Source: a virus. From it: a stretch of DNA of 22,229 nucleotides. The stretch spans positions 1-22,229 of the IMG/VR virus record IMGVR_UViG_3300027851_000136. One strand, 5' to 3'. Position numbers and translations under genes: made by a program. Under the pieces are notes generated by a model. That model did no database searches, was not told the DNA's origin, and saw only the letters and a program-made list of their open reading frames with translations. Below are positions 1 to 22,229 of the stretch, in pieces; within the stretch, counting starts at the first letter, position 1; every line of letters starts with the position of its first letter.

Positions 1-162
1 CGGCCACGGCGAGCGGCGATCAGGGCGCGGCCACGGCGAGCGGCTATCAGGGCGCGGCCACGGCGAGCGGCACTCGGGGCGCGGCCACGGCGAGCGGCAC
101 TCGGGGCGCGGCCACGGCGAGCGGCTATCAGGGCGCGGCCACGGCGAGCGGCACTCGGGGCG
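1..162 (+). repeat. Six tandem 27-bp repeats
   Basis: Six consecutive 27-bp units start at 1, 28, 55, 82, 109 and 136, followed by a degenerate start of a seventh unit. The units are identical except at the two codons encoding residues 6 and 7 of the nine-residue peptide (gatcag, tatcag or actcgg). The array runs to the window edge, so its full length is unknown. The 27-bp period keeps the reading frame, so gain or loss of copies would change protein length without a frameshift. Confidence 0.95.
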
Positions 163-359
163 CGGCAATGTCCCCCGGATACGGCGGGACGGTCATGGGT
201 GCGGAGGGCTGCGTTTTGTTCGCGGTCGAGCGCGGCGAATGGGATGGGCGCGGATATCCCGCCCTGTCCACTGCCTCGGGCATTGTCGGCAAGAAGGGCC
301 TGAAACCCGACACCTGGTATCGCGCCAAGGCCGGAAAGCTGGTGGAGGTGAGCCAATGA
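3..359 (+). CDS. Tandem 9-residue repeat protein, 5' partial
   Basis: The gene is open from the window edge, so its start lies upstream; 118 residues are visible. Residues 1 to about 54 are six copies of a nine-residue unit of the form ATASGxxGA, where the two x positions are DQ, YQ or TR. The C-terminal 50 residues form a non-repetitive module with a KPDTWY motif near the end. I recall phage and prophage proteins with similar Ala/Thr/Ser/Gly repeats followed by a KPDTWY-type C-terminus; their function is not known to me. Such short Gly/Ala-rich repeats could stack as a beta-roll or beta-helix, as in YadA-type heads, but that is speculation. The stop codon overlaps the ATG of the next gene (ATGA), so the two are probably co-translated. 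Confidence is high that this is coding and low for any role. Confidence 0.8.
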
Positions 360-4374: not shown

Positions 4375-5570
4375 CAGGTGACGTTCACCACGATATTGCC
4401 CGCAATGAGTTGCGCGCGCTCGCTGATGGTGATGGCCACGGGGGTTGTGGCGAGCGTGCCGGGGGCCGTTCCGATTTCGAGGTTGGCGACGTACAGTTCA
4501 GGCGCGGCGCGGTTGACCGCCCCCGCGAGCTCAAAGGCCGAGACGTCTTGACCGATGCCCAGCCCCGCCTCGCCGGCTTGCTCCCCGCTGGCGTACGCCA
4601 CCATGGCCTCGCGCACGACGGTGGCCGGGTCGCCGCCCGCCCCCGTGACCACAACGGTTACGGCCGCATATATCGGCACGGCGTCGGGCCGTTGAAACTG
4701 TACGTCGTAATCCTGGCCGGACGCGGGATCCGTCACGGTCACGGTCGTTGTGCCGTTCCAGCCGCAGCCGAGCGATTTCTTGGCCAGAAGCGCCGCACCC
4801 ACTTCGCTGTCCAACCCGCCGTCCACGCAGACGTATATGCTGTGCGGATCAAGGGTCACGTCCTCGATCGTCAACGGCGCGTCGGTGTAGTTCTCGCGGA
4901 AGACCACGGAGGTGACGTCCGCGACGTTCCAGACGCCCGCCAGGATAGCTTCGGGCAGGGCGACACCCTGCGCGCCAAGGGTCACGCGACGGCGTGCGCG
5001 GGCGTCCTGATCGCTTTCCGTCGCCGCGCCAGGTTCGGCCGGCGTCGGGTTGCTGACGGTTTCCCAGCCCAACACGGGCGTTACGATGGTGTCGAGCGCC
5101 AAGGCCGACGCACCGACCGGGCCGAACTCGACGCTGCGGAACGTGGCGAGGCCGGCGCCCAGACTGTCCAAGGTTACGGCGCCGGTCATTTCAAACAGCG
5201 CGCCCGCTTCGCCGACCCGGGCTTGCGCGCCTTGCGGGATCAGCGCCCCAGGCACGCCGTTGATTTCAACTTCGCGCAGCACCGATCGCGTGGCCTGTAC
5301 CCGCGCGCCGCCGGTCAGCGCCCAGATGGCGTCCAGAAATACACCGCCGGCAAGGTTCGGGTTGATTTGGTTCGCCAGGTCGGCGTTGTTGCGCACCAGG
5401 GCGTCGCGGCCCAGCGTGTCCAGCGTGATCAGCACGCCTTGGGGCGTGTCGGGCGTCGTGATCAGGTCTTGGCCTAGCGCGCCTCTCCATTCCGCTTCGA
5501 CCGTGGCGCGCAGGGTCGCCGTGTCGGGAAAAATGACGCCCGTTTCGGTGATGTATCCGTAATCAGCCAT
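4374..5570 (-). CDS. Baseplate J-like wedge protein
   Basis: This 398-residue protein belongs to the baseplate J / gp47 family. Such proteins form the inner wedge of the contractile baseplate together with the gp25-like protein encoded just upstream. The N-terminus (GVIFPDTATLRATVEAEW, followed by LITLDTLGRDALVRNNADLANQINPN and AGGVFLDAIWALTG) is the characteristic start of the family, and the Asp/Arg-rich segment DQDARARRRVTLGAQG near residue 190 is also conserved. The length is in the normal range of 350-450. The ATG at 5570 overlaps the gp25-like stop by eight bases and the stop overlaps the DUF2612 ATG. The J assignment is among the most secure in this window. Confidence 0.92.
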   Translation of the reverse strand: MADYGYITETGVIFPDTATLRATVEAEWRGALGQDLITTPDTPQGVLITLDTLGRDALVRNNADLANQINPNLAGGVFLDAIWALTGGARVQATRSVLREVEINGVPGALIPQGAQARVGEAGALFEMTGAVTLDSLGAGLATFRSVEFGPVGASALALDTIVTPVLGWETVSNPTPAEPGAATESDQDARARRRVTLGAQGVALPEAILAGVWNVADVTSVVFRENYTDAPLTIEDVTLDPHSIYVCVDGGLDSEVGAALLAKKSLGCGWNGTTTVTVTDPASGQDYDVQFQRPDAVPIYAAVTVVVTGAGGDPATVVREAMVAYASGEQAGEAGLGIGQDVSAFELAGAVNRAAPELYVANLEIGTAPGTLATTPVAITISERAQLIAGNIVVNVT

Positions 5571-5910
5571 TGAAGGTCACGGGTCCGTAGATGGTGCGGA
5601 GGCTTACGGTGTAGCGCAGCGTGTCGCCCGCGCGCCGAATGATCAGCGAAACAATACCCGTCACGCCTTCGACCGCCAATAGCTGCTGGCGCAAAGCCGC
5701 CTCGAAAGCCTGGACGTTCGGCACGCCAGCCCAAGCTGTCGTCTCGAAGGGCATGCCCCGCAGGAAGTCCAGAACGCACTCCGTGCGGCGCGTGCGGGCG
5801 GCATGGATCGACATTTGCAGCACGGCCGGCGCGCCGGACAGCAGCTCCAGCGAGCCGTTGGACCCGACAACCAAATCGTTGTTCGCGTTGACGGCCAGCG
5901 TCAAGGTCAC
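5563..5910 (-). CDS. gp25/gpW-like baseplate wedge protein
   Basis: This 115-residue protein is in the size range and position of the T4 gp25 / P2 gpW / Mu gp46 wedge proteins, which start sheath assembly and pair with baseplate J. It begins at a GTG at 5910 that overlaps the spike stop codon as GTGA; the reading frame is open further upstream, but that part overlaps the spike gene and has a different, Arg-rich composition. Visible features are an N-terminal 'NNDLVVGSNGSLELLSG' strand region, a central helix with WAGVPNVQAFEAALRQQLLAVEGV and a C-terminal beta strand pair ending in YTVSLRTIYGPVTF. This order is typical of the lysozyme-like gp25 fold family. The stop overlaps the J start by eight bases. 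Confidence 0.75.
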   Translation of the reverse strand: MTLTLAVNANNDLVVGSNGSLELLSGAPAVLQMSIHAARTRRTECVLDFLRGMPFETTAWAGVPNVQAFEAALRQQLLAVEGVTGIVSLIIRRAGDTLRYTVSLRTIYGPVTFNG

Positions 5911-6656
5911 GGGGTGGGCCCTCCGGTCGTACCGGCGCCGATGGTGACGCCCGTGTGCCTGTGTGTCTCCAACGATAGACCACCGGACCCCGTGACGCCA
6001 CCCGTGGCGGACAGAGCGCCGTTGACGACGACAGCGCCGTTGATGGTGATCGTCGGCGCTGTCAGGGTGATGCTGGCGCTGGCGGTGATTTCCGCGTCGG
6101 CCACCGTGGCGGTCAGCGACGGGGCGTCCACCGTGACCTCGCCGCCCGTCGTGACCGCAACGACGCCCTGGCCGATGGCGACGCGGGTTTCGCCGTCCGT
6201 GGATTGCAGCACGAGGCGTTCGGCGTCGTCGCCATTGAGCGACCATGAGCGCATAATGTCGGGGTAGAACACGCCGTCTTGGAAACTGTGCGTGCGGGCC
6301 GTGTTGGGGGGTGCGTCACTCAAAGTCTGCAGCGCCAACGACAGGTCGCGGTCGGCGGCCATCAGCCACCCCAAGTCCCCGGGCGCGAGCGGCAAGGAAA
6401 TGACGAAACCGCCGCCCGCGTATTGGAATACCGGCACGCTGGGCACTTGCGCTCGCGTTACCCGTTCGCCCTGCGTCGTGACCATCTGGACAAGGGGCTG
6501 CACGGTGGCGCGGTTCGTTGCCCTGTCGTACGCGATGACCCGAGCAGGCAGCATGACGTCCAGATTTTGCGCCATTTTCTCGCCGAAGATACGCAACAGT
6601 CCCGGCAAGGATCCGTAGTCCGCCGGCGCTGCGCTGGGCGGGGCGTTGTCCGTCAT
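5907..6656 (-). CDS. Baseplate central spike protein (gp138/gpV-like)
   Basis: This 249-residue protein is the likely membrane-piercing spike under the hub. Residues 30-110 (DVMLPARVIAYDRATNRATVQPLVQMV to GDLGWLMAADRDLS) form the OB-fold N-terminal domain seen in phi92 gp138 and P2 gpV. Residues 145-225 are repetitive short beta strands (VAVTTGGEVTVDAPSLTA and similar) that build the trimeric beta-helix needle. Near the end is an HRH motif at residues 232-234; in gpV-type spikes an HxH motif from three chains binds an iron ion at the tip, so the same is inferred here. The ATG overlaps the hub stop (ATGA). No lysozyme domain is present. Confidence 0.87.
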   Translation of the reverse strand: MTDNAPPSAAPADYGSLPGLLRIFGEKMAQNLDVMLPARVIAYDRATNRATVQPLVQMVTTQGERVTRAQVPSVPVFQYAGGGFVISLPLAPGDLGWLMAADRDLSLALQTLSDAPPNTARTHSFQDGVFYPDIMRSWSLNGDDAERLVLQSTDGETRVAIGQGVVAVTTGGEVTVDAPSLTATVADAEITASASITLTAPTITINGAVVVNGALSATGGVTGSGGLSLETHRHTGVTIGAGTTGGPTP

Positions 6657-7510
6657 GCTCCGGCGGCCTCGCTACTTGGGGGCGGCGTGTAGCCGTTGCG
6701 GCTCGCTTCGGCCGTCCAGTAGAACGGCGTGTCGCGGCTGGCGGCCTCGAAACCCAGCTTGAAAATCGTGTAGTTGCCGGTCAACGCCGGGTTCAAGTCG
6801 CTTTGCAGCTCGAGCGCGCCGCCCAGCACGGTGTCCTGGTCAATGAAGAACGCCACCTTCACGCCGCGCTCCGTGGCTTCGGGGACGCCCACCATGCCAC
6901 TGGCGGACGACAGCACTTTCGTGCGCTCCGGCAACGGCGTGCCGCGGTCTTTGACCACAAGGGTGCTGTCGTCAACGTACGCGTCGACACCGCCCGCAAG
7001 CTCCAGATTGTTGACCTGGCGCAGCGCCGGGCCGCTGAAAGACCAGTTGCCGATTTGTTTGTCCGCAGCGCGGAAGTCCAACTGCAGGCCAAGGTCCGCG
7101 GCGACCCTGGCGGCAATCGCGCTCAACGGCTCCTGCGTCAAACCGGACCGGGCGATGATCAGGCCCTTGGCGTAGTTGCCCGTGAGCGCGCGGATCGTCA
7201 GCGCAATGTCCGGCGGTTGCGAGGGCGCCGACAGCGTGATTTCGCCCACGAAAATGCGCGACAGTCCCGTGCTGACCCGGCCAATGTCCACGAACAGGCG
7301 CTTGGGCGTGCGGTTGGCATTAAACGGGCTGGTTTCGGTCAAAATGTAGTTGCGCGTTTCGGCCGTCAGGTTGCTGATGGTGATTTCGCACGTGTTTTGC
7401 TGCGCGGACGCAAACTTTTCCCCCGACACCTTAATGTCGAAGGCTTCGTCGTACACCTTGACTTCGCCGTCAACTTCAATGCCGACGCGGATTAAGCGAG
7501 CGTCCAGCAT
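6653..7510 (-). CDS. Baseplate hub protein (gp27/gpD-like)
   Basis: This 285-residue protein probably forms the trimeric hub that joins the tail tube to the spike. It begins MLDARLIRVGIEVDGEVKVYDE, followed by FDIKVSGEKFASAQQNTCEITISNLTAETR, a start shared by hub proteins of small-genome myoviruses and Mu-like phages. The remainder alternates strands and short helices in the manner of the two tube-like domains of gp27 and gpD (for example GLTQEPLSAIAARVAADLGLQLDF). The last 15 residues are Pro/Ser/Ala-rich and likely disordered. It sits between the plug and spike genes, as expected. The ATG at 7510 lies just two bases after the plug stop, with only a weak ribosome-binding site, suggesting translational coupling. 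Confidence 0.8.
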   Translation of the reverse strand: MLDARLIRVGIEVDGEVKVYDEAFDIKVSGEKFASAQQNTCEITISNLTAETRNYILTETSPFNANRTPKRLFVDIGRVSTGLSRIFVGEITLSAPSQPPDIALTIRALTGNYAKGLIIARSGLTQEPLSAIAARVAADLGLQLDFRAADKQIGNWSFSGPALRQVNNLELAGGVDAYVDDSTLVVKDRGTPLPERTKVLSSASGMVGVPEATERGVKVAFFIDQDTVLGGALELQSDLNPALTGNYTIFKLGFEAASRDTPFYWTAEASRNGYTPPPSSEAAGA

Positions 7511-7511
7511 T

Positions 7512-7808
7512 TCACAGTTCCGCCGCCGACGCGTAGATCAGGCGTTGCGTGACCCCGAACTGCGCATACGTCGGCAGCTCGCCGCCGTCCGTCAGCAGCA
7601 GGAAGTTGCCCGCCCCCGCCAGGTAGCGATACGGGATCAAGGGCGTGCCGGCGACGATGCGCGTGGCGTCCAGAATGCGCACGCCGTCAACCGTCACGTC
7701 GGCCACCATGACGCCCAACGCTTCCTTGATGCGCAGGGTGAATGAATGGTCGTCCAGCCGCAGAGCGAACTCTTGATTGGGGATCGGCTCGAGGGGGATG
7801 GTTTGCAT
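7512..7808 (-). CDS. Small baseplate plug protein (Pam3 gp18-like)
   Basis: This is a 98-residue beta-rich protein beginning MQTIPLEPIPNQEFALRLDDHSFTL. Proteins of this size and N-terminal pattern are found next to Dit-like and hub genes in compact contractile tails; in cyanophage Pam3 the equivalent protein plugs the baseplate hub. The sequence shows alternating strands (FTLRIKEALGVMVADVTVDGVRIL) and a Gly-rich C-terminal half. The family call comes from memory of this pattern and its context. The ATG overlaps the upstream stop by one base (TAATG). Confidence 0.7.
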   Translation of the reverse strand: MQTIPLEPIPNQEFALRLDDHSFTLRIKEALGVMVADVTVDGVRILDATRIVAGTPLIPYRYLAGAGNFLLLTDGGELPTYAQFGVTQRLIYASAAEL

Positions 7809-8389
7809 TAGCCGAACGCCCGGAAAAGAATGGACCCGCGGTCGTTGTCGTTGGACGCGGCCGGCGCGGTCTGCTGCGTGCCGCGACGAGCGGTCGACGT
7901 GCGCGCCTGGCCGGCTGGCGTCGGCGCGACCTGCGCGGGCCCGATAACCGCGCCGCCGTATGTCGTCTGGGCGATGATGACTTCGCGCAGTTGCAGGGTC
8001 ACGGTCAGCGCGTCGAACTCTTCGGGCCGTTCGTCGTGCGGCATGGCGGTAAGCACCATGTTATCGTACGTCTGGGCCCGGGTCTGGACGGTCAGCAGCG
8101 TGGACGCCCGGAACAACTCGCGGATTTCGCCGTACGTCGTGGGCGCTTGGCTTCCCGTGACCATCAACGGCATTTCGATTTCGACGGGCAGAAAAACGAT
8201 GTGGTCGACCACGGACGAGTTGTCTTCCAAGGGGTGCTCGAGGGCCTTGGCGACTTCGTACACATTGGCGGTCATGGGTCGCGCCAGGGCGAAGACTTGT
8301 TCGCCCGTGTCGGCACGGCGTACCATCACCACGTCAGCGACCGTGGCGGTGTTGTCGGTCTGGACGGAGGATCCGGCGGTCAATGCCAT
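7808..8389 (-). CDS. Dit-like tail protein linking tape measure end to baseplate
   Basis: This 193-residue protein resembles the Dit-like N-terminal domain found immediately after the tape-measure gene in many contractile phages. Residues 50-100 (ALEHPLEDNSSVVDHIVFLPVEIEMPLMVTG) carry the family pattern of 'HPVEDG-S-V-DHV-P' followed by a beta strand, then helix and strands up to TVTLQLREVIIAQTTYGG near residue 143. The last 45 residues are Pro/Thr/Ala-rich and probably flexible. The expected role is to form the ring connecting tail tube and hub. Overlaps of one base with both neighbours place it firmly in the tail operon. A LysM domain, present in some relatives, is absent. Confidence 0.75.
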   Translation of the reverse strand: MALTAGSSVQTDNTATVADVVMVRRADTGEQVFALARPMTANVYEVAKALEHPLEDNSSVVDHIVFLPVEIEMPLMVTGSQAPTTYGEIRELFRASTLLTVQTRAQTYDNMVLTAMPHDERPEEFDALTVTLQLREVIIAQTTYGGAVIGPAQVAPTPAGQARTSTARRGTQQTAPAASNDNDRGSILFRAFG

Positions 8390-10128
8390 CAGCGATCAAT
8401 CCCATCATCGAACTGGGCGGCTACGTCGCCGTACCGCTGCGTCAACGCGTTGCCCACGCCGGCCGGGTCGGTGCTGCGCGTGTTCACGGTGACGCCGCCC
8501 ATGTTGATATTCTGCGTGCGGTTCGTTCGGCTGTTGCTGGTGACGCTCGCGGCGGTCTGCGAGGCAAACGGGGACGCGGCGGCGCGAGCGAGCTGGCCCT
8601 GCCCCATCGCAGCGGCGTTGGCGCTGTCGCTGACCGGCAGACCCATCAAACGCCGGGCCCCGTTGACCGCGATGTTTATGCCCTGAATGATTTTGCCGAT
8701 CGTCGCATCCCACCAACGGCCGATCATTCCGAACACCGCGCCGAACACGTCGCCCAGCGAGCGAACGGCCGCAGCGACGCCGCCAAAGACGATGCGCGCC
8801 AAACCGACCCACGGCGTGATCAGGGCGACAAAGACCTTGGCGACAAAGCCGAATACCGCAACGGCGACGTCGCGGAACAAGCCGAAAATGGGCGCGGTCA
8901 GCGAGTACCAGGTGCGGAACGCGCTGACGAGAAAATCCGCCGTCGCTTTTGTGGCACCCACAAGGCCGTTGAAGACTGCGACGGCGACGCGGCCCAGCAC
9001 GCGGAAGGCCACGGCCAAGCCTTCGACCAGCGCCCGGAACCATCCGTACCGCCCCATGAGCGAACCGATCAGGCTGTCTTGCCCGTTCAAGAACGCCATG
9101 ACGTCTTCGTACGCCAAGGCAAAGGCAATGCCCAGCGCTGCAATCGCGGCCACCGCCAGCAGAATGGGCCACGTCGCCGCGATGACGCCCGCCGCAGCAG
9201 ACCAGATGGCGGGGAGAAAGGACGCGGTGATCACGGTGCCCGCGATGGCAAAGGCGATGCCCAGCCCCTCGACAAACTTGGCGTTCTCGCGCATCCATTG
9301 CGCGCCCTTAACCAACCACCCGTTGACCGTGGCCAAGGCCGGCGCAATGGCCGACACCAGCGTAAACTTCCAACCCTGCAGCACGCCCTGGAGCTGTTCG
9401 GAGCTCTCTTTGTACTTGTCGATCCGGTTGGCTTGTTCCTGCGTGATCGCGCCGTTGCGCAGTTGCTCTTCGGACAGGGCCTCAATGGCGGTGCGGCCCT
9501 GCAGCAGCAGCTTTATGGTGCCTTCGTCGGTGATGCCCAGCCGGCGAATGGCCGCCAGTTGTTTGGTCTTTTCCAGCCCCTCGAGCGCGCCCGCCACCTC
9601 CAGCAGCGACGTGCGCACGTCCTTAAGGTTGCCGTCCGCGTCGGTGGCGGACAGGCCCAGCGCCGCCAGGGCTTCCACGCCGCGCTTGCCGATACCCGCC
9701 TGGATCCGGCGCAGCATTGTGTCGTACGCCTCCAGTTGCGCTTCGGCGTCGGCCAGCTCGCCGCCGCTCGCCTTGACCGCCCGACGCCACGTGTCGAAAT
9801 CCTGCGCGCCCAGACGGATGCGCGCGGACGCATCGATCAGCCGGTCGGCTTCCTCCACGGTGCCCTGCAACGCCGCGTTCAAGGCGTACACGCCTGCCGT
9901 AAGCCCCGCCGCCCCGATCAGGCCAATCACGCCCTTGAACGACCGGCCCAACTTGCCCGCGTTGTCTGCGGCTTTGTCAATCGCCGGTGCGAGCTGACGG
10001 GCGCCTTTCACACTGTCGTCAATGGCGTCTGCGGTCTTGGCACTCTCGCCGCGCAGGTCCGCCATTTCCCGTTCCGCCTTTTTGGCGTCGGTGTCGAACA
10101 GGATGTAAAAGGTGTCCAGTATGCTCAT
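8389..10128 (-). CDS. Tape measure protein
   Basis: This 579-residue protein sets tail length. It has a helical N-terminal part (residues 10-60, many Lys/Glu/Ala), a long helical region, then three hydrophobic stretches (about 289-340, 364-390 and 410-460) suited to membrane insertion during DNA entry. The C-terminus carries NINMGGVTVNT (about residues 540-550) followed by a final helix, a common ending in tape-measure proteins. At about 0.15 nm per residue this predicts a tail near 87 nm, which is an inference from the usual rule. The ATG overlaps the chaperone stop (ATGA), and the gene follows the two-frame chaperone as expected. No peptidase or lysozyme domain was seen. Confidence 0.9.
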   Translation of the reverse strand: MSILDTFYILFDTDAKKAEREMADLRGESAKTADAIDDSVKGARQLAPAIDKAADNAGKLGRSFKGVIGLIGAAGLTAGVYALNAALQGTVEEADRLIDASARIRLGAQDFDTWRRAVKASGGELADAEAQLEAYDTMLRRIQAGIGKRGVEALAALGLSATDADGNLKDVRTSLLEVAGALEGLEKTKQLAAIRRLGITDEGTIKLLLQGRTAIEALSEEQLRNGAITQEQANRIDKYKESSEQLQGVLQGWKFTLVSAIAPALATVNGWLVKGAQWMRENAKFVEGLGIAFAIAGTVITASFLPAIWSAAAGVIAATWPILLAVAAIAALGIAFALAYEDVMAFLNGQDSLIGSLMGRYGWFRALVEGLAVAFRVLGRVAVAVFNGLVGATKATADFLVSAFRTWYSLTAPIFGLFRDVAVAVFGFVAKVFVALITPWVGLARIVFGGVAAAVRSLGDVFGAVFGMIGRWWDATIGKIIQGINIAVNGARRLMGLPVSDSANAAAMGQGQLARAAASPFASQTAASVTSNSRTNRTQNINMGGVTVNTRSTDPAGVGNALTQRYGDVAAQFDDGIDR

Positions 10129-10660
10129 TGCTTGCGGTTCGCCGCCAGATACTCGTTAACGCGGGTCGTCATGACGATTTCCCAAAGGTCAAAAGCCTCT
10201 TCCAGCGTATAGACGGTCCCTAGTTCCCGGAGGGTGGCTTGTCCGCTGGCGACAATTGCTCCGATAAAGCCGTCAACATTTGCGAAAGCCACGGCTTCGC
10301 TTTCTCCATAAGCGGCGCGAGGGAAGCGGCACTCACGCCGTTCTCGAAAAAACTGCAGTTGTACTCGATCATGGCCCATTCGAGCCGCGCCAGGGTTTCC
10401 CAGTCTTCTGCGTGGTTGTCCACGAGGGCGCGCGTCGTGAGCATCAGGGGGGCGTCGCGCCCCTCAATCTGGACGCCGACGTGCGACATGAGCTTAAGCA
10501 TGATCGCTTCGCTCACGCCGTAATCGCCCAGCTTCGGCAGATTGGACACCGGGTATTTGGCGACGATTTCGCGCCCGACCGTGGCCGGGAACTTGTGCAA
10601 CACGAACGTCCTGGCGTCACCCGACGCTGTGCGAAGTTCGAGGGGCTTGGGGTGCAACAT
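10125..10660 (-). CDS. Tail assembly chaperone, predicted G-T frameshift product
   Basis: Reading begins at ATG 10660, shifts -1 at the slippery TTTTTTC (10352 to 10346), and continues in the second frame to the stop at 10125-10127. The product would have 105 residues from the first frame plus 73 from the second, 178 in total. The second frame carries an ATLRELGTVYTLEEAFDLWEI stretch, recognisable as the T-like part of phage chaperones. The second frame lies -1 relative to the first, the direction used in lambda G-T. An alternative is a separate 55-residue protein starting at GTG 10292, with GGAG eleven bases upstream. The stop overlaps the tape-measure ATG (ATGA). Confidence 0.6.
10220..10660 (-). 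CDS. Tail assembly chaperone, G-like short product
   Basis: This is the in-frame product of the chaperone locus, 146 residues, lying between the tube and tape-measure genes where lambda gpG-type chaperones occur. The ATG at 10660 is preferred because GGAG lies nine bases upstream; a GTG at 10690 would add ten residues with poor support. Residues 1-65 contain the LELRTASGDARTFVLHKFPATVGREIVAKYP pattern common to phage chaperones of this type, and residues 85-110 are helical. Such proteins coat the tape measure during tail assembly and are absent from the virion. The gene also encodes an extended product by a probable -1 frameshift. Confidence 0.78.
   Translation of the reverse strand: MLHPKPLELRTASGDARTFVLHKFPATVGREIVAKYPVSNLPKLGDYGVSEAIMLKLMSHVGVQIEGRDAPLMLTTRALVDNHAEDWETLARLEWAMIEYNCSFFENGVSAASLAPLMEKAKPWLSQMLTALSEQLSPADKPPSGN
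10314..10352 (-). promoter_or_regulatory. Candidate -1 frameshift signal (slippery site and hairpin)
   Basis: On the - strand the heptamer T-TTT-TTC falls in the correct X-XXY-YYZ phase of the first frame. Six bases later an 8-bp stem (GGCGTGAG with CTCGCGCC, one G-U pair) encloses a ten-base loop. The loop segment CGCTT can pair with AAGCG about 11 bases past the stem, so an H-type pseudoknot is possible. Slippery phase, spacing and stem are all in the range of known frameshift sites. Frameshifting itself is inferred. Confidence 0.6.
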
Positions 10661-14981: not shown

Positions 14982-16115
14982 CTAGATGCCGGTGTAACGC
15001 ACGACGTTGTACGGGCGCTTGACCAGCACGCCGGCTGTGGCGTTGGAATAGTCTTCCACGTACGCCTTGGCCTGTTGATCCACGCCCACCAGCATGAAGC
15101 GCGAGGGCACAATCTGTACCATCGTCTGCCCGCCGTCGTCGGATCCGTTGTCCGGGCCGCTGTCGGCGTACATGTAGAAGACGTTTGCCCCGCCGTTCGC
15201 ACCGTTGAGTTCCGGAGCCGACACGACCCGAACGTTCGGGTAGGTGCCGCGCAGCCAGTCGCGAACAGAGTTGCCGAAGTCGGAAGTCACCGACAGGTAA
15301 TCGACGCGGTTGGACGCGACCGCCAGGGTGATCGGCGTGGTGTTCGGGTCGATCGTGTCGCCGGACTGGGTACGCAGCGCGGCCAGGGCGGTGCGAAGCT
15401 GCGCGGTGATCACAAGGAAGGTGGCCGTAGTCCACGCAGCGCCGGTGACGGCGACATAGTTGGGCAGCGACGGGTCGTTCAAGAAACCGTACGTGCGGTT
15501 GTTCGCGGCGTTGTAACCGTAGAACCCGACGCGGTTACGCTGAATGTCCAGAGCGAGCGCAGCGGCCGAACGCTTCGAAGCGCCGGACGACATGTTGATT
15601 TTGGCGGCGCGGGCTTCCTCGAGCTTGCCGACGCGCAGGCCCTCTTCGAACCGCACGATGGTGCGGCGCTCGAAACCGTAGTTCCACGACGCCAGCGGCA
15701 CGTTGTTGTAGTCGCCGTACGGAATGGCCAGGCCCGTCAGTTCCATGGACCCCTGAATGACCTCCTCGTCGGCCCAGTCGCCCGCCGTGACGTTGCCGAC
15801 CAGCTCATCGATCTTGCGCGCCGTGGTGACGCTGCGAACGAAGCCCGGAAGGAACTTCTGGAGGAACTGGATCGGCGCGCCGACGTTCCCGGCGTAAACG
15901 GTCGGGTTGAGGTCGGGCGCGGCGTCCATTGCGCCGGCCGCAACAGCCATGCGTGACAGGTTGTCGACGACGTTGCGATGATCCGCGCCGAAGTGAACGC
16001 CCAGCAGCGCCAGACCGGCGATGATGGTCTGATCGATTTGATCAGCGCCCAGCGACAGCGGGCCGCGCTTCATGATGGTGGCGCCGTCGAACGCGCTGTG
16101 AACCTTGGAAGACAT
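14982..16115 (-). CDS. Major capsid protein (DUF2184)
   Basis: This 377-residue protein matches the DUF2184 group of HK97-fold capsid proteins. Typical features are the segment FLQKFLPGFVRSVTTARKIDELVGNVTAGDWADEEVIQGSMELTG, a Tyr/Asn/Arg-rich stretch (IPYGDYNNVPLASWNYGFERRTIVRFEEGLRVGKLEE), and a C-terminal domain with VPSRFMLVGVDQQAKAYVEDYSNATAGVLVKRPYNVVRYTGI. It lies after the cement gene and 23 bases separate the two. A hairpin terminator follows the gene, consistent with high expression. The protein has no obvious cleaved scaffold domain, in line with a separate scaffold in the DUF2213 gene. Confidence 0.92.
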   Translation of the reverse strand: MSSKVHSAFDGATIMKRGPLSLGADQIDQTIIAGLALLGVHFGADHRNVVDNLSRMAVAAGAMDAAPDLNPTVYAGNVGAPIQFLQKFLPGFVRSVTTARKIDELVGNVTAGDWADEEVIQGSMELTGLAIPYGDYNNVPLASWNYGFERRTIVRFEEGLRVGKLEEARAAKINMSSGASKRSAAALALDIQRNRVGFYGYNAANNRTYGFLNDPSLPNYVAVTGAAWTTATFLVITAQLRTALAALRTQSGDTIDPNTTPITLAVASNRVDYLSVTSDFGNSVRDWLRGTYPNVRVVSAPELNGANGGANVFYMYADSGPDNGSDDGGQTMVQIVPSRFMLVGVDQQAKAYVEDYSNATAGVLVKRPYNVVRYTGI

Positions 16116-16721: not shown

Positions 16722-17825
16722 TTATGCGTCTCCGTTGATGTATTTGTCGATGACGCTGCCCTGGGCGGGCGCGGCGTCCATGGCGACCGGGGCGGGCACA
16801 GGCTTGGCGCGCAGGAAGCCGTCGAGCGTCGCGCGCTGCGCGGCTTCCGGCACGTCCTTGATGCCCAGCTTGTCCAGACCGTACGCGACGACCTGCGCGG
16901 CGTTCATGGTGGCGTGGGCCGCGTCGAAGGCCCCGACGTGCGGCGTGAGGCGCTTGATCAGGTCGGCTTTGTCAGCCGCGTCGTGCGCAGCGTCGGCTGC
17001 GTCAACGGTCGGCTTCATGGCCGCGATCTGGGCCTTAAGCGGAGCGGTCGCGGCGTCAATGGCGGCGGCCAGCGCGGCCTTGTCCATGGCGCCCTTGTCC
17101 TCTTCCTTGTCTTCGCCCTCTTCCTCTTCGTCTTCCTTGGCCTTGACGGCTTCGGCGAGGGCGGCGGGCATGGCGTCCGCGACAGCTTTGGTCACGGTGT
17201 CGGGCAGACCGGCCAGGGCCGTGGCGACAGCGGCGTCAATGGCGGCGAGGGTGTCTTTGTCCAGCACGGGCTGCAGCTCCTGCGCGTCCACGTGGTCGTA
17301 CGTGAACCTGTGATCCAAAACGGCGACTTCGGGGCCCATTCGCCCCTGCTTCACCACTGCAACATGATTACCACGCATTTTCCGTTGCACAACGTCATAT
17401 TTTACGCCGTTGTGCTCGCCGGGCGAAAAATCGTACTCGCAGCGATAGCCGCACGACAGTTCTTTCTTGCCGCTGTTGATCTGCCGCGCCAGGGCTTCCG
17501 AAAAAATCTTGATGTTGCTGTACAGCGTGCCGTCGTCGAATACGACGTCATCGCCGGTCACACCGCCCACGCCCTTGCGCTCCACAGGCGTCAAGCCCGC
17601 GTCGATCGACCCGAGCATTTCGTGATCATCAATAATCGGAACGGTGCGGAACGACGCGAGGCATTCCGGATCCGCGAGCTCTTCGGCCGGGCGGTACACC
17701 TGGTACACGCGGTCGGGTTCGTCGGCGCCGATGCTCGAGCCGAGATATGGGAACACGCCGACTTTCGACAGCGGGTTGCGCTTTACGACGAACCATCCAT
17801 TCTGATCGTAAATTCTGGCGCTCAT
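16722..17825 (-). CDS. DUF2213 prohead protease fused to scaffold
   Basis: This 367-residue protein begins with a DUF2213 domain (residues 1 to about 180). Family motifs visible are IDDHEM near residue 68, KELSCGY with Ser124, and GNHVAVV with His154; Ser124 and His154 are the likely catalytic pair by comparison with prohead proteases. Residues 185-300 are Ala-rich helices broken by a very acidic segment (about 228-245, mostly Glu, Asp and Lys), which is typical of a scaffold. The C-terminal 60 residues form a further helix-rich part. It would direct capsid assembly and then be degraded in the maturing prohead. The ATG overlaps the stop of the endonuclease gene (ATGA). Confidence 0.87.
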
Positions 17826-18430
17826 GGTTCCAATCTCTTACCCGCGATCAGCGCCAAACGCGCCGCGCGCATCTTCATCCGTGTTTCTTTTGATCGTGGG
17901 CGTGCGCTACTGGCCGCACCGATGCGAGACTTAGTCTCTTCTGTATGACGGAAGCCTGTAGCTCGCAAGGACAGGTTTCGTCGATATTCTTCCGACCGTA
18001 CCGACCCGGCGGCATTTTTGTTGCCGCGCAACGTCGCGGCTATCTTATCCCGCGTCTCCTGCGTGACCACGCGGCCCGTTTTGTGGGCGTTGATTTTCGC
18101 GCAGTGTTCAGGCGTATACTTGCGCCCCAGTTGGGTTTGCGCCCCGCCGCACCCGATATTCCAACCGATGTTTTCTGCCGGGCGCAGCCGTTGTTCCAGG
18201 TCGAGACAATACGCCGGGTCGCCCACGCACAGCACGCCAAAAACGAGGTTTTCGGGCTTGTATCTGCGGATGGCGTCTTGAAGACGACGGCACGTGTTGG
18301 CACCCTTTTGGGCCTCGCGAACGTGTCGTTTCCACCGATACGCGGGCTTTCCGCTGGTGAAACCGACATAGCCTTGCGTGCGGCAATCGGTGTGTTCGGA
18401 ATGACGGATCCAATAAACGCTCGCCGTCAT
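17822..18430 (-). CDS. GIY-YIG endonuclease with NUMOD3-like repeats
   Basis: This 202-residue protein is a probable free-standing homing endonuclease. The GIY-YIG core has VYW at residues 5-7, YVG at 21-23, Arg32 (RWKRHVREA) and Glu79 in the LDLEQRLRP segment, followed by NIGWN, an order found in Seg-type enzymes. From residue 101 on there are four or five short basic units of the form [19 protein letters not shown] or [15 protein letters not shown], which resemble NUMOD3 DNA-binding motifs. The ATG at 18430 overlaps the MuF stop and its own stop overlaps the protease ATG, both as ATGA. Such genes spread by cutting relatives that lack them. Whether it is active cannot be told from sequence. 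Confidence 0.87.
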
Positions 18431-19296
18431 TGATCTTCGCCAAACTCCAGCACGGGGCGCATGACGCACCGGCAGTTGATCAACTGACCAGGCAGACCCC
18501 GTTCTTTCGTCTTGTCGTCAATGATGGGCGGGTCGTCAAGGCTGTAGATATTGCCGCTCATTTCGACGTGCAGTTTGCGCGGCTCTTTACCGCCGGAGCT
18601 GTGCAGCCATTCGAACTTGCGGATGCCCAGCCCTTTCATGCGCGCGGCATTGAGGTTGGACGTAGCCTTGGACGTCTGGTCGCGGGCGATCAGTTCCGCG
18701 CGCTTCGTGGTCACGACGCCGATATGCTCGATCGCCGCCAGGACGCCGGCCGACCCGTCGCCGCGCTGAATATTGCGCATCACTTCGCCCTGTATTTTCA
18801 AAAAATACTGGTCGGGAATGGACCGAATAAGCGCGACGTTTTCGACGATGCCCGCTTTGGTAATCTCAATCGCGGCCTTGGGGATTGTCCGCGTGGACAG
18901 CGACACGCCGCCCGACATTTCCTTAAGCGATTGGTGCAGTGACGCACTGGACGCGGCGTCAACCTGGGCCTGCATGCGTTCGGCGAGCGGGCGCGATTGG
19001 CGCGAGAAAGCCGCCATGAACCGCTTGCGCAGGGCGTCCGTCAGGATCCGCGCTTGCGAAGCGTACGACGGCGCGTCCTGCGCGATGGCGTCGGTTGCGA
19101 ACTGGCGGTCAAGCCGGCGGAACCCCGTTTCCGTGGCAATGCGCATTTGCCGAACCAGCAGGGTCAGAGCGCGTTGGTATCGGCTCTCGACCGCCGCGCT
19201 GTAGTGCAACGGCGCGCCCTTGAACGTGTGACCCCCGCGCGCTTCGGCGTACGCCTGGCGGCTTTTCGTCAGCGGCGGGCGGGTGTTGCGCGCCAT
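18427..19296 (-). CDS. Mu gpF-like minor head morphogenesis protein
   Basis: This 289-residue protein carries the MuF domain in its C-terminal half: ARDQTSKATSNLNAARMKGLGIRKFEWLHSS, followed by KEPRKLHVEMSGNIYSLDDPP and PGQLINCRCVMRPVLEF. The Cys-Arg-Cys motif and His of LHVEM are conserved in the family. The N-terminal half is helical and basic, suited to binding the portal. The protein is packaged in small copy number and helps head assembly. Some MuF proteins carry a C-terminal toxin, but this one ends right after the domain. The ATG overlaps the portal stop by one base. Confidence 0.88.
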   Translation of the reverse strand: MARNTRPPLTKSRQAYAEARGGHTFKGAPLHYSAAVESRYQRALTLLVRQMRIATETGFRRLDRQFATDAIAQDAPSYASQARILTDALRKRFMAAFSRQSRPLAERMQAQVDAASSASLHQSLKEMSGGVSLSTRTIPKAAIEITKAGIVENVALIRSIPDQYFLKIQGEVMRNIQRGDGSAGVLAAIEHIGVVTTKRAELIARDQTSKATSNLNAARMKGLGIRKFEWLHSSGGKEPRKLHVEMSGNIYSLDDPPIIDDKTKERGLPGQLINCRCVMRPVLEFGEDQ

Positions 19297-21251
19297 CAGT
19301 CGTCCAGCGCCTCAAAAACCTCCGGCCCGAACACCAGCTTGCCGCGGTACGGCTCGACTTTCGCCAAATCGACGTTGCCCAGTTCGTACGTAATGGTCAC
19401 GTGGGGTTGGTATCCCGCGTGGTCCCACGACGCCCCGCGCTCGCGCATTTGCTCGTGGCGATAGGCCAGGGCCGACGAGTTGAACAGCAGGACGATGGCG
19501 CCCTTGTCGCCCAGCGGCTCCACAAGGCGCGCGCCGCCCGGCTCGATCGTCAGGTTGCCGTTCTGGTCGCTCGACCAGTTGTCGCCCATGACCATCCAGT
19601 CAACGGGCGCGCGGCTGTAGGTCACGGTCACGTGCATGTCGTCGGCGGGCGTCGTCACCTTGAAGCCCTGCGCCTTGGCCCATTTGATCAGCTCGCGGGC
19701 GTTGACCAGCTTGCGGCACACATAGAGCGGACGGGGCGCGGCGTCCGCCGTTTCCTGCTGCTGCGCTTCGGCCAATGCGAGGGCTTCCGCTTCCTCTTGC
19801 TCGACGTCTTCCGGCGACACGTCGGGCAGGTCGGTGTAATCGCCGCCCTTGTCGCCCTGCAGCCGGGCGCGCACGTCCATGCCATCGATCGCGCCGGCGT
19901 TGACCAAAACGGCGTCGCGTTCCGCCTTGATCTTTTCGATTTCGGCGTATTCCTTGGCGGACGGGGTGTCCAGCGGGTTCCAGTCCGCGGTCACGTCCAG
20001 CGACCCCGGGGCCTTCCCGTACTTCGGCTCAATCTCCGAACGGGTCAACAGCATCAGGTGACGCTCCAGCAGCGGGTCCAGGTCGTTCGCCTGGATACTT
20101 TCGAGCGTCTGCTGATAGTTTTCCGCGTCGCCTTCGCCCGTAGCGTCGAAGCCCTTGGGCGGCGTGCCCATGAGTTTGGTTACGGGCATGTCGGCAATCG
20201 CCGCGACGATCATGTACTGCGACGCAATGACGTTATCGAGGTCCGCCAGCGACGTCTCCAACTGCGCCACGGTGTCTTCGCTGTCCACCATGTTGACGCC
20301 AAAGTTGTCGCGCATCTCCGTCATGTTCTGCAGGTGCGTGACGGTGCCTTCCTGGTTGGCCAGCTTTTCCGCCAGGTCGGTATTCCACGTCAGCAGACGC
20401 TTCGACATGGCGAGCATCGGCGCTTCGTTGGCGGTGCGCTCCGCAGCGTACACGCGTTCCATGATGCGTTGCGGCAGCGGCACGCCGCCATAGCGGTACG
20501 ACGGTTTCAGAACGTCCGCGACGGGATAGGGGACGCACACGACCAGATGCGACCGATGGTACAGTCGGCCGTTGACTTGCCACCATGTCGGGTCATAGAA
20601 CCCCGGGTTCGCTGGGTCGCTCGCGGCCGCAGCGTCCAAAATCGGCGTGCACCAGTAAGGATCAACCTGCGTCATGCCACGGTAGCTGCCCGGCGTCACG
20701 CCATCCGGATTGAACGGCAGTTCGTAGTACTTCGGGTCCGTGCTCTCGATAAGCGGGATCCACACGCGCACGCCGAACAGACGCGCACGCTGGACAAACT
20801 CTTGCATCTGGGCGTTGAGGCCCATGCGCTTGTTGGCTTTGTGCAGGTCTTTGATCGCGTCGGCCTGTTGGCTTTCGTCCAGACCGTCGATCGTCATGCT
20901 GAAACCGTGGCGCACCGCGTCCCGCGCGGGCGTCGTGCACGCTTTGTCCACGAGCCAATGCTGCGCGACGAACGCCGAGAACTGATACCCAAGAAACCCT
21001 TGCGCCGCGTACCACGCGAAAAGCGCCTCCGGGGCCTGCCCGGCCGTGTCGCCCCATGCGCCCAAAGCCCCCGCCCCACACATAGCGTCCTGACCCGCCC
21101 CTGTGACCACGGGAGCGGCACGACGCACGCCTTCGATGGCGCGAGCGATGACCGCCTTGCGCTGGTCGGGCATCATGCGGTCCGTCGACAGCACGCGCTC
21201 GCGCGGTGCGAGGGCCGAGGCGGCGGGCTTGGGCGACCAGGGCCAACGCAT
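19296..21251 (-). CDS. Portal protein (DUF1073) fused to Acb1-like phosphodiesterase
   Basis: This 651-residue protein has two parts. Residues 1 to about 480 form a DUF1073-type portal: EALFAWYAAQGFLGYQFSAFVAQHWLVDKAC near residue 80, a PYWCTPILD stretch at about 198, and MPVTKLMGTPPKGFDATGEGDAENYQQTLE at 355-385. The portal ring is the DNA gate of the head. Residues 481-507 are an acidic, Gln/Ala-rich linker. Residues 508-651 look like an Acb1-type 2H phosphodiesterase, with HVT at 540-542 and HVT at 617-619, Tyr510 and a C-terminal FGPEVFE with Glu644. Acb1 cleaves the cyclic oligonucleotide signals of CBASS immunity. Activity of this copy is inference. The stop overlaps the MuF start. Confidence 0.88.
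   Translation of the reverse strand: MRWPWSPKPAASALAPRERVLSTDRMMPDQRKAVIARAIEGVRRAAPVVTGAGQDAMCGAGALGAWGDTAGQAPEALFAWYAAQGFLGYQFSAFVAQHWLVDKACTTPARDAVRHGFSMTIDGLDESQQADAIKDLHKANKRMGLNAQMQEFVQRARLFGVRVWIPLIESTDPKYYELPFNPDGVTPGSYRGMTQVDPYWCTPILDAAAASDPANPGFYDPTWWQVNGRLYHRSHLVVCVPYPVADVLKPSYRYGGVPLPQRIMERVYAAERTANEAPMLAMSKRLLTWNTDLAEKLANQEGTVTHLQNMTEMRDNFGVNMVDSEDTVAQLETSLADLDNVIASQYMIVAAIADMPVTKLMGTPPKGFDATGEGDAENYQQTLESIQANDLDPLLERHLMLLTRSEIEPKYGKAPGSLDVTADWNPLDTPSAKEYAEIEKIKAERDAVLVNAGAIDGMDVRARLQGDKGGDYTDLPDVSPEDVEQEEAEALALAEAQQQETADAAPRPLYVCRKLVNARELIKWAKAQGFKVTTPADDMHVTVTYSRAPVDWMVMGDNWSSDQNGNLTIEPGGARLVEPLGDKGAIVLLFNSSALAYRHEQMRERGASWDHAGYQPHVTITYELGNVDLAKVEPYRGKLVFGPEVFEALDD
19299..19730 (-). 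other. Acb1-like 2H phosphodiesterase domain of the portal gene
   Basis: This segment encodes portal residues 508-651. Two HxT motifs lie 77 residues apart (HVTVTYS and HVTITYE), as in 2H phosphoesterases, where both His residues act on the phosphate. The opening LYVCRK and the spacings from Tyr510 to His540 and from His617 to Glu644 resemble what I recall of T4 Acb1, where catalytic histidines are near 44 and 113. I cannot align the two here. Confidence 0.75.
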
Positions 21252-22229
21252 CAGACGGCCTTCGTAATGGTCGCGCGGACCGTGCCGCTCGCCAAGTCGA
21301 TTGTCGCGGCGGGTTTGACGCGAACGGTAAGTGTCCCGGATCCCAAATCGATCGGGCCGCCCGTGTGATTGTGCAGCAGCACCGTGACGGTATTCGCGGA
21401 GCTCACATACGCCGTCATCATGAGGGTCTGCAAATCAAGCGAAAACGCCGCTTCTGCCACGTCGCCCAAAACGGCGCCCGTCACAGTGACGGTAGTCGAA
21501 ACGGTGCTGTTGTCGCTGATGCTGGGCGGGTCGTACGTCGCGGATCCGGTCAGGTCGGCGTCTGGGCGGTAGAAATAGTACGACACGGTGCCCGCCGCGC
21601 TAACCCACGCCTCGATCGCAACGCCTTGCGAGGCGAGACTAAACGACGCTTGCGCAAAGTCCCCGAGCGCCGCGCCCGCCAGGGCGACCGTCTGGGTCGG
21701 GCCGCGCTGGCCGGGCGCGAGGGCGGGCGGGTCATACGTCGCGGACGCAACGGTCACGGCGTCCGCCAAGTACCACCGGGTATTGTAGAACGTCAGCTCG
21801 TAAACGCGGTTTAGCTGCAAAACAACGTCACCGCCCGTATTGGTCACGATGGTGGCGTTGTTTTGCAGCGTGAACGCTGCCTCCGGGAGGAGACGAATAG
21901 TCTTGCCCGAATAGGACCCCAAGATACTCGTTATTGTGACCGGCGTCCCTGTCAGGAACGCAAACGTTGTCCCGTTCATATCGAGCGTTGCGGAACCTTG
22001 CCGCGTCACGATTGGCGCTTCGACCGCCGACGACCCAAGGTAGCCGTCAAAGCTAAACAGGCGGCTCGTGTACGGGCCGGAGCACTGGTAATAGGTGTTG
22101 CGCAGATAGACCTGCAGAGCGGCCGCCGTGTCTTCATAGCCGTAGAGCGGCGTCTTGGCCGTGTTGCCCGGGGTCGCCAGCGCCATGGCGACGGGGCCGA
22201 CCGTTTGCGACGTGTTGACGGTGTACGTC
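21251..22229 (-). CDS. Beta-rich phage protein with duplicated domain, 5' partial
   Basis: The frame is open to the window edge. An ATG at 22186 exists but has no ribosome-binding site, so the gene probably begins further upstream and about 325 residues are visible. The first half (YQCSGPYTSRLFSFDGYLG, later GKTIRLLPEAAFTLQNN and NRVYELTFYNTRWYLAD) has the look of the end of a beta-helix or fibre. The second half contains two copies of a domain with ATYDPP, GAxLGDxAxAxFSL and SxAxTV. I recall similar units as C-terminal modules in many phage proteins, with no known role. Its stop overlaps the portal ATG by one base (TGATG). It may be a head or tail decoration protein. Confidence 0.65.
   Translation of the reverse strand, partial: TYTVNTSQTVGPVAMALATPGNTAKTPLYGYEDTAAALQVYLRNTYYQCSGPYTSRLFSFDGYLGSSAVEAPIVTRQGSATLDMNGTTFAFLTGTPVTITSILGSYSGKTIRLLPEAAFTLQNNATIVTNTGGDVVLQLNRVYELTFYNTRWYLADAVTVASATYDPPALAPGQRGPTQTVALAGAALGDFAQASFSLASQGVAIEAWVSAAGTVSYYFYRPDADLTGSATYDPPSISDNSTVSTTVTVTGAVLGDVAEAAFSLDLQTLMMTAYVSSANTVTVLLHNHTGGPIDLGSGTLTVRVKPAATIDLASGTVRATITKAV
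21317..21742 (-). repeat. Tandem duplicated beta-domain in the partial gene
   Basis: Two units of about 65-75 residues follow each other, beginning with ATYDPPAL and ATYDPPSI (near 21742 and 21541). Both share TV-x-L/V-x-GA-x-LGD, FSL, VSxAxTV and a run of hydrophobic strands. Only the second has a full LGSGTLTVRV ending. The units diverge clearly at DNA level, so the duplication is old. Confidence 0.75.

What the first reader, a model, noticed from the sequence alone, without database searches (positions are those of the whole stretch)
19296..21251. Portal protein carries an Acb1-type anti-CBASS phosphodiesterase domain
One frame encodes a portal and, after an acidic linker, a domain with two HxT motifs and the Tyr and Glu positions expected of Acb1. 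Acb1 hydrolyses cyclic di- and trinucleotides that activate CBASS. Database names for the DUF1073 family already hint at such fusions, so the pairing is not new as such, but the function of an enzyme tied to twelve portal subunits is not settled as far as I know. It could act in the cytoplasm before heads assemble, be packaged in the virion, or be released by cleavage in the linker. The phage's own protease gene lies two genes downstream.
Basis: partly seen in the sequence, partly recalled or inferred. Interest (0 to 1): 0.85.

Follow-up and report, generated by a model that had tools for sequence, protein, structure and literature searches.

The report
Phage portal with built-in anti-CBASS enzyme
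A phage's DNA-gate protein carries at its end what looks like a working enzyme for destroying a bacterial alarm signal; such fusions were already described, but here the enzyme module turns out to be swapped between different head proteins, which suggests that phages want it inside their assembling heads.

Summary
Confirmed. The 651-aa gene on the MINUS strand (19296-21251) encodes a PF06381 portal (residues 90-447), an acidic low-confidence linker and a PF23474 Acb1 domain (508-650, E 2.8e-40). The predicted fold superposes on Acb1 crystals (7t26: Z 16.4, 2.0 A over 132 residues). The HxT/HxT tetrad, Tyr12 and Glu141 equivalents are present; T4's Trp74, Phe107 and lid Trp147 are not, so substrate range is open. 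Prior art is strong: 2H-portal and 2H-MuF fusions with a role against nucleotide-signalling immunity were proposed in 2017 and 2022, and the homologous Pam3 portal is solved, though without its Acb1 part. New here: (1) the cassette is swappable: apart from sister L003, the 14 nearest portals found (44-80% identical) lack it, five carrying a pyrophosphatase there, while the next-nearest Acb1 (79%) sits on a 27%-identical portal; (2) Acb1 is also fused to HK97- and Mu-type portals, MuF proteins and three prohead-protease families; in one portal clade it sits mostly on the protease; (3) it is under portal-like purifying selection. Best reading: an active, prohead-tethered anti-CBASS enzyme acting mainly in late infection; delivery with the virion is the main rival.

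The parts
19296..21251 (-). portal-Acb1 fusion gene, 651 aa
   Evidence: open frame from ATG 21251 to TGA 19296-19298
19911..20984 (-). portal domain, residues 90-447 (PF06381)
   Evidence: E 9.2e-86; model matches the Pa193, E217 and Pam3 portals, Z 30.3, 29.4 and 23.8
19734..19820 (-). acidic low-confidence linker, about residues 478-506
   Evidence: low pLDDT; the Acb1-less sister portal L002 stops at this place
19302..19730 (-). Acb1 domain, residues 508-650 (PF23474)
   Evidence: E 2.8e-40; 7t26 Z 16.4, rmsd 2.0 over 132 residues
19722..19724 (-). Y510, equivalent of T4 Acb1 Tyr12
   Evidence: Tyr in 58 of 59 unique cores of the motif-independent set, 190 of 194 of the full set
19626..19634 (-). 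first HxT motif, H540-T542 (T4 H44, T46)
   Evidence: H and T in 59 of 59 cores of the motif-independent set
19395..19403 (-). second HxT motif, H617-T619 (T4 H113, T115)
   Evidence: H in 59 of 59 and T or S in 59 of 59 cores of the motif-independent set
19311..19313 (-). E647, equivalent by alignment of T4 Glu141 (adenine contact)
   Evidence: Glu in only 33 of 59 and 105 of 194 cores, Ala in sister L003
18427..19296 (-). MuF-like head morphogenesis protein, start codon overlaps the portal stop codon
   Evidence: PF04233 E 1.2e-13; phrog_324
16722..17825 (-). DUF2213 protein, annotated head maturation protease
   Evidence: PF09979 E 1.4e-46; phrog_3778 E 8.9e-107; the same family carries Acb1 in other phages
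14982..16115 (-). major capsid protein
   Evidence: PF09950 E 1.4e-13; phrog_264

Best explanation
The gene makes a portal with a catalytically competent Acb1-type cyclic-oligonucleotide phosphodiesterase at its C-terminus, i.e. on the side of the portal that faces the inside of the head. It is a removable cargo module, not part of the portal machine. Most likely it works in late infection: twelve copies per portal, plus unassembled portal subunits, are made together with the other head proteins, when CBASS signalling is known to set in, and destroy the small, diffusible alarm nucleotides in the cytoplasm and inside the still DNA-free prohead. Shown here: domain, predicted fold, active-site conservation, purifying selection, modularity, recurrent fusion to head proteins. 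Inferred: hydrolysis of CBASS nucleotides, position in the head (from E217), timing.
For: Acb1 profile and fold matches. In 59 unique domain cores that were fetched without using the HxT motifs, exactly five columns of 161 are invariant: H540, T542, H617, R598 and E644; three of the four catalytic columns in the top five has a chance of about 6e-5. dN/dS against sister L003 is 0.16 for Acb1 and 0.15 for the portal. Modularity: L002, 80% identical in the portal to the window and 89% to L003, stops at the linker and has no Acb1 in its 46.9-kb record. In the portal tree the window sits in a 16-row clade (support 100/99) of 9 portals without cargo, 5 with InPase and 2 with Acb1; Acb1-bearing portals as one clade are rejected (p-AU 4e-7 after relabelling L068). 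Partners: 155 of 174 representative Acb1 domains are fused to an identified head protein: 142 to portals of three families, 2 to MuF alone, 11 to three protease families (classes set by local profiles, with Pfam identities of examples). E217's portal C-terminal barrel points into the head (PMC10329688, passage). T4 Acb1 activity appears about 15 min into infection, with the late onset of CBASS (PMC9117128, passage).
Against: Fusion is not needed merely for late expression, so a plain timing role does not explain why the identified partners are head proteins. Three of the four aromatic base contacts of T4 Acb1 are not kept in this copy. CBASS-type cyclases in host genomes were not significantly more frequent within one bacterial family: 3 of 11 Acb1-positive against 21 of 187 other genomes, p 0.13, centre genome left out. 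No activity, position or timing was measured.
Confidence: 0.5

Rival explanations
1. Injected variant: the enzyme is carried in the virion, cut from the portal in the linker by the maturation protease (or otherwise freed), and ejected with the DNA, so that CBASS signals are disarmed at the start of infection. This is the published reading for 2H-MuF and 2H-portal fusions.
For: PMC5512222 and PMC9503650 propose packaging and injection for such proteins (passages). Identified partners are head proteins; one giant Acb1 protein has an SLT transglycosylase domain near its start (L186), and several are large multi-domain proteins. In the Pam3 portal entry 8hds 442 of 621 residues are modelled and the aligned part ends at residue 450, before its Acb1 domain (match at 455-610), as expected if the domain is cut off or mobile.
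Against: The portal stays in the particle (general knowledge), so release needs a cut that is not shown. At most 12 molecules per virion would enter (dodecamer as in E217), against many more made late (inference). A missing domain in an averaged map is also expected from a mobile linker.
Confidence: 0.3
2. The domain is a 2H enzyme for another substrate, for example RNA ends with cyclic phosphate or another nucleotide signal, rather than CBASS di- and trinucleotides. (This question cuts across the late and the injected readings, so the odds do not add up to 1.)
For: W74 to E578, F107 to H611 and no lid tryptophan in this copy; E141 is Glu in only 105 of 194 cores; 2H domains in phage proteins were also proposed to be RNases (PMC5512222, passage); the same portal position carries a pyrophosphatase in E217-like phages, so general nucleotide housekeeping is conceivable.
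Against: Acb1 profile 137.8 bits against 14.1 bits for the 2'-5' RNA ligase family, below its cut-off; nine further Acb1 homologues tested by others all cleaved 3'3'-cGAMP and cAAA (PMC9117128, passage), though I could not see whether any was a portal fusion.
Confidence: 0.25
3. The domain is only structural, a cap or spacer on the portal crown without enzymatic use.
For: It is part of a virion protein.
Against: The catalytic His and Thr columns are invariant in the motif-independent set; a sister portal at 80-89% identity lacks the domain; the same domain sits on proteases and MuF proteins. One copy with a lost catalytic His (to Tyr, L170) was seen among 194 cores.
Confidence: 0.04

Closest known systems
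Acb1 of phages T4 and FBB1 (PDB 7t26, 7t27; PMC9117128)
   Same: fold, HxT/HxT tetrad, Tyr12, Glu141 position, invariant Arg (R598) and Glu (E644)
   Different: here fused to a portal; Trp74 is Glu, Phe107 is His, the C-terminal lid with Trp147 is missing in this copy
Portal of cyanophage Pam3 (PDB 8hds; genome ON014755)
   Same: same architecture, PF06381-type portal plus C-terminal Acb1
   Different: distant portal, outside the window's 16-row clade; its Acb1 part is not modelled
2H-portal and 2H-MuF fusions of the polyvalent-protein papers (PMC5512222, PMC9503650)
   Same: the same pairing, with a proposed role against nucleotide-signalling immunity
   Different: the passages seen do not mention 2H-protease fusions or swapping between portal lineages; the rest of these papers was not read
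Portal of Pseudomonas phage E217 (gp19; PDB 8fvh)
   Same: among the two closest solved portals (43% id, Z 29.4); extra enzyme domain at the same C-terminal place; the window's baseplate hub matches E217_GP41
   Different: the cargo is an inorganic pyrophosphatase, PF18823, outside the modelled part of the virion structure (97-528 of 765)
L003 and L002 (IMG/VR contigs)
   Same: sister phages, portal 81% and 80% identical
   Different: L003 has the Acb1 domain with lid, L002 has none

Membership tests
Acb1 (PF23474) | profile match above the curated cut-off | tested here: met
   137.8 bits against 27
Acb1 (PF23474) | 2H phosphoesterase fold of Acb1 | tested here: met
   predicted model: 7t26 Z 16.4, rmsd 2.0 A over 132 residues; 7t27 Z 16.4, 1.9 A over 131
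Acb1 (PF23474) | HxT/HxT catalytic tetrad | tested here: met
   H540, T542, H617, T619
Acb1 (PF23474) | metal-independent cleavage of CBASS cyclic di- and trinucleotides | not testable with these tools
   needs an enzyme assay
T4/FBB1-type ligand pocket | Tyr12 and Glu141 | tested here: met
   Y510 and E647 by alignment
T4/FBB1-type ligand pocket | aromatic Trp74, Phe107 and lid Trp147 | tested here: not met
   E578, H611, lid absent because the protein ends at LDD. Over 194 cores the Trp74 column is Glu in 152 and Asp in 21, and lid Trp is present in 140. So it is filed in the Acb1 family, not in the T4-type pocket subgroup
PF06381 portal | profile and portal fold | tested here: met
   288 bits against 33.8; portals 9b41, 8fvh and 8hds top the list
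2H-portal fusions (polyvalent-protein literature) | 2H domain in one polypeptide with a portal | tested here: met
   one uninterrupted frame
2H-portal fusions (polyvalent-protein literature) | packaged in the head and injected | not testable with these tools
   needs virion mass spectrometry and ejection tests

The most novel reading that the evidence does not exclude
The inside of the prohead is a place that phages repeatedly use to hold an anti-CBASS enzyme. One Acb1 cassette has been moved among portals of three families, MuF proteins and three prohead-protease families, and within one phage clade between portal and protease, so what is selected is position inside the assembling head rather than any one partner. 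Head assembly, which produces known CBASS triggers, would thereby carry its own silencer.
Probability: 0.35. Interest if true: 0.75.

Novelty: new member of a known kind. Interest (0 to 1): 0.5.

Why it matters
If the enzyme acts from the prohead, phage assembly carries its own counter to an alarm that late phage products can set off: the Bas13 prohead protease, as cited in PMC12409349 (passage), and an RNA from the terminase genes of staphylococcal phages (PMC10686824, abstract passage). The L002/L003/window trio and the portal-or-protease clade give clean natural comparisons, and the question whether head-borne 2H enzymes act late or are injected, proposed in 2017 and for which my searches listed no experimental test, becomes a simple experiment.

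Tried and rejected
Separate Acb1 gene in Synechococcus phage Yong-M3-232 (L068): rejected as a probable assembly artefact. The split comes from an exact 127-bp tandem copy; the near twin Ssp-JY40 has a record 127 bp shorter (45,139 against 45,012) and one fused CDS; a second pair of the same series also differs by 127 bp (58,832 against 58,705). I recounted L068 as fused and recomputed: label changes 20 instead of 21 on the Acb1 tree and 4 instead of 5 on the portal tree, and p-AU against one Acb1 portal clade 4e-7 instead of 2e-89.

Conservation counts on all loci lean on the search: the scans used patterns that hold the first or second HxT motif, so the 194-core counts are not independent of the motifs. 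I therefore recounted on the window, the loci and the named records found by tblastn (65 domains, 59 unique cores) and rest the argument on those.

'Prohead protease' fusions suggested by database names (hits H93, H94, H108, H123-H130): in the three that I opened (H93, H108, H129) the annotated protein is a stand-alone Acb1, so the name misleads; the others were not opened. Acb1-protease fusions were seen in the contig and genome loci.

CBASS cyclases in hosts: SMODS over its cut-off in 14 of 49 Acb1-locus genomes (the genome of L218 was left out) against 15 of 385 of a class sample, p 2e-7, but genome size, sampling and taxonomy differ. Within one family it was 4 of 12 against 21 of 187 (p 0.048), and 3 of 11 without the centre genome (p 0.13). 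Not used as support.

In an even sample of 385 genomes of one class PF06381 was over its cut-off in 7 genomes, and Acb1 lay in the same frame only in the centre genome. In 199 genomes of one family Acb1 was over its cut-off in 12, in frames of 603-879 aa in 11 of them (three of these with one stop codon inside); the partners of these frames were not all checked.

Rows dropped before counts: L001 and L063 (copies of window and L003) and L126 (cut by its contig end), leaving 247 domains, 194 unique cores and 174 representatives under 95% identity within a class. Many loci are overlapping fetches of one contig. Of the two 'MuF alone' cases L184 is cut by its contig end and L059 matches MuF only weakly (E 0.0015, below the Pfam cut-off). 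The Acb1 tree is weakly resolved (25 of 96 inner branches starred, bootstrap not settled), so 20 partner changes is a parsimony count, not a number of proven events; head-fused against not needs 9 and portal against protease 3. Whether L002 lost the domain, or window and L003 gained it separately, is not settled: L002 and L003 are sisters in the portal tree (99/89).

PADLOC gave no match. The Pam3 structure paper is not held, so what its authors say about the domain was not seen.
Full report
What is there. The gene lies on the minus strand, 19296-21251, 651 aa. Residues 90-447 are a PF06381 portal and 508-650 a PF23474 Acb1 domain. The window is a virus record of 22,229 bases; its baseplate hub matches E217_GP41 (E 5e-82), so it is probably a contractile-tailed phage related to E217. 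Downstream on the same strand follow a MuF-like head protein, a NUMOD3 homing endonuclease, a DUF2213 head protease, a virion structural protein and the major capsid protein.

Structure. An AlphaFold2 model from an alignment of 64 fusions has mean pLDDT 80.5; 12 of 14 block means from 511 to 650 are 89 or more, and the linker at 471-500 has block means of 48-56. The portal part matches the Pa193, E217 and Pam3 portals (Z 30.3, 29.4, 23.8). Residues 507-650 match the apo Acb1 crystal structure 7t26 with Z 16.4, rmsd 2.0 A over 132 residues at 30% identity. By sequence the closest PDB chain to the C-terminal part is the Pam3 portal 8hds (E 2e-32), then Acb1 7t26 (E 2.6e-11). The Pam3 chain has 621 residues but 442 are in the structure, with the aligned part from 22 to 450, which leaves no room for the Acb1 domain; E217 gp19 is modelled for 97-528 of 765 (PMC10329688, passage). 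So in both virion structures the C-terminal cargo is mobile, or gone.

Active site. T4 Acb1 uses H44, T46, H113 and T115, stacks bases on Y12, W74, F107 and W147, and reads adenine with E141 (PMC9117128, passage). The window has H540, T542, H617 and T619, and Y510 and E647 for Y12 and E141, but E578, H611 and no lid for W74, F107 and W147. The lid is missing because the stop codon TGA, overlapping the ATG of the next gene, comes right after LDD; sister L003 runs on with a Trp. In 59 unique cores fetched without the HxT motifs, H540, T542, H617, R598 and E644 are the five invariant columns of 161; T619 is Thr or Ser in 59, Y510 Tyr in 58, E647 Glu in 33. In the larger set of 194 cores, partly fetched through the motif, the catalytic positions hold in 194, 194, 193 and 194. 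Between window and L003 dN/dS is 0.160 for Acb1 and 0.154 for the portal. A domain without catalytic use would not look like this.

A removable cassette. The portals nearest to the window are L003 (81% identical over the PF06381 part, with Acb1) and L002 (80%, without); L002 and L003 are 89% identical to each other. In the DNA alignment L002's portal stops at the linker, where L003 and the window run on into Acb1, and no Acb1 is found in L002's 46.9-kb record, nor in those of L006 and L009, the other two Acb1-less relatives tested (such records may be fragments). The next 13 portals in the set (44-54% identity) have no cargo found (L004-L009, L073, L259) or an inorganic pyrophosphatase, PF18823, at the C-terminus (five phages including E217) (L004, L005 and L008 were not Pfam-scanned but have short frames of 481-509 aa). 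All other Acb1-bearing PF06381 portals in the set are at most 27% identical in the portal, yet up to 77-79% in Acb1 (L010: 26.5% against 78.8% aa and 45% against 79% nt identity pairwise; 22% and 77% in the multiple alignments). The portal tree puts window, L003 and L002 together (100/100) inside the 16-row clade of portals without cargo, with InPase and with Acb1 (100/99). One clade of all Acb1 portals is rejected (p-AU 4e-7), and presence or absence needs at least 4 changes. So the cassette moved between distant portals, and this C-terminus is a cargo slot.

Other partners. Among 174 representative domains the partners are PF06381 portal 129, HK97-type portal PF04860 7, Mu-type portal PF06074 3, portal plus MuF in one giant chain 3, MuF alone 2, DUF2213 protease 6, ChaB-Acb1-XkdF-type protease 4, S78 protease 1, ADP-ribosyltransferase 1, other large proteins 7, and stand-alone 11 (classes by local profiles, Pfam identities for examples). 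None of the 25 chains scanned with Pfam had a major capsid, tail or terminase domain as partner. In one portal clade (100/99) six representatives have a portal without Acb1 and carry Acb1 at the N-terminal side of the DUF2213 protease downstream of MuF, whereas the seventh, L145, carries it in the portal. These loci were found through Acb1, so the set cannot say how often it is absent; in an even sample of 385 genomes of one class the PF06381 matches of all genomes but the centre one lacked it.

What is known. PMC5512222 (2017; passages) reports 2H domains fused to MuF or portal and suggests RNase action or degradation of nucleotides of immune systems; PMC9503650 (2022; passage) repeats the fusions, names SMODS systems and proposes packaging and injection. 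PMC9117128 (2022; abstract and passages) established Acb1. My paper searches for Acb1 or anti-CBASS with portal, capsid, prophage or virion terms and for 2H with portal, polyvalent proteins or MuF listed no experimental test of a portal-fused Acb1; I saw listings and passages, and subscription papers and the Pam3 paper were not seen.

How it probably works. The portal C-terminus faces the head interior in E217. Twelve enzymes would therefore sit in the prohead, and more on free subunits, at the time when head proteins are made. T4 Acb1 activity also appears late (about 15 min), with the onset of CBASS. Small nucleotides can reach the enzyme until DNA fills the head (inference). That the identified partners are portals, prohead proteases and MuF proteins fits both this and the published injection idea; for portals, injection needs a cut that is not shown. 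I put the late, prohead-tethered reading first (0.5) and injection second (0.3); a different substrate (0.25) is a question that cuts across both.

Verdict. What adds interest is the evidence that the module is swapped among portals and shared with proteases while its active site stays intact.

Noticed in passing
L294 (G496:C19:47000-62000), 5234-10330: A prophage-like locus has a SMODS nucleotidyltransferase (CBASS-type cyclase) and a protein with a weak SLATT_4 match on the opposite strand directly beside a terminase-like gene and a portal-Acb1 gene: an alarm maker and an alarm breaker side by side. A search of the 296 held loci with this cyclase found it again only in loci fetched for SMODS, none beside another Acb1 fusion.
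   Followed up: partly
L068:1467-1720: Exact 127-bp tandem copy that splits the portal-Acb1 gene in the Yong-M3-232 record; probably an assembly overlap left in, as two record pairs of this series differ by exactly 127 bp.
   Followed up: yes
window 17822-18469 (-): NUMOD3 / group I intron-type homing endonuclease gene between MuF and protease; no such frame is listed at that place in sister L002, so it may be a recent insertion.
   Followed up: no
window 21251-22186 (-): Protein with weak tail-spike matches and, by eye, two similar repeats directly upstream of the portal gene; in L002 a different, longer gene stands there.
   Followed up: no
window 1-166: Tandem array of 27-bp units (6.1 copies, 92% match) at the very start of the record.
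   Followed up: no
L062 and hits H123-H130 (Rhizobium/Agrobacterium plasmids): Acb1 genes on rhizobial plasmids, annotated 'phage prohead protein/protease'; the one opened (K84 plasmid) is stand-alone: a plasmid-borne anti-CBASS candidate under a misleading name.
   Followed up: partly
L010, L032, L095, L145: Portals with stacked cargo: Acb1 plus a PBECR3 nuclease domain (first three; Pfam only for L032), or Acb1 plus an ADP-ribosyltransferase domain (L145).
   Followed up: no
L074, L260-L263: E217-like portals carry an inorganic pyrophosphatase at the same C-terminal position (reported for BcepF1 in PMC5512222); E217's lies outside the modelled part of its virion structure.
   Followed up: partly
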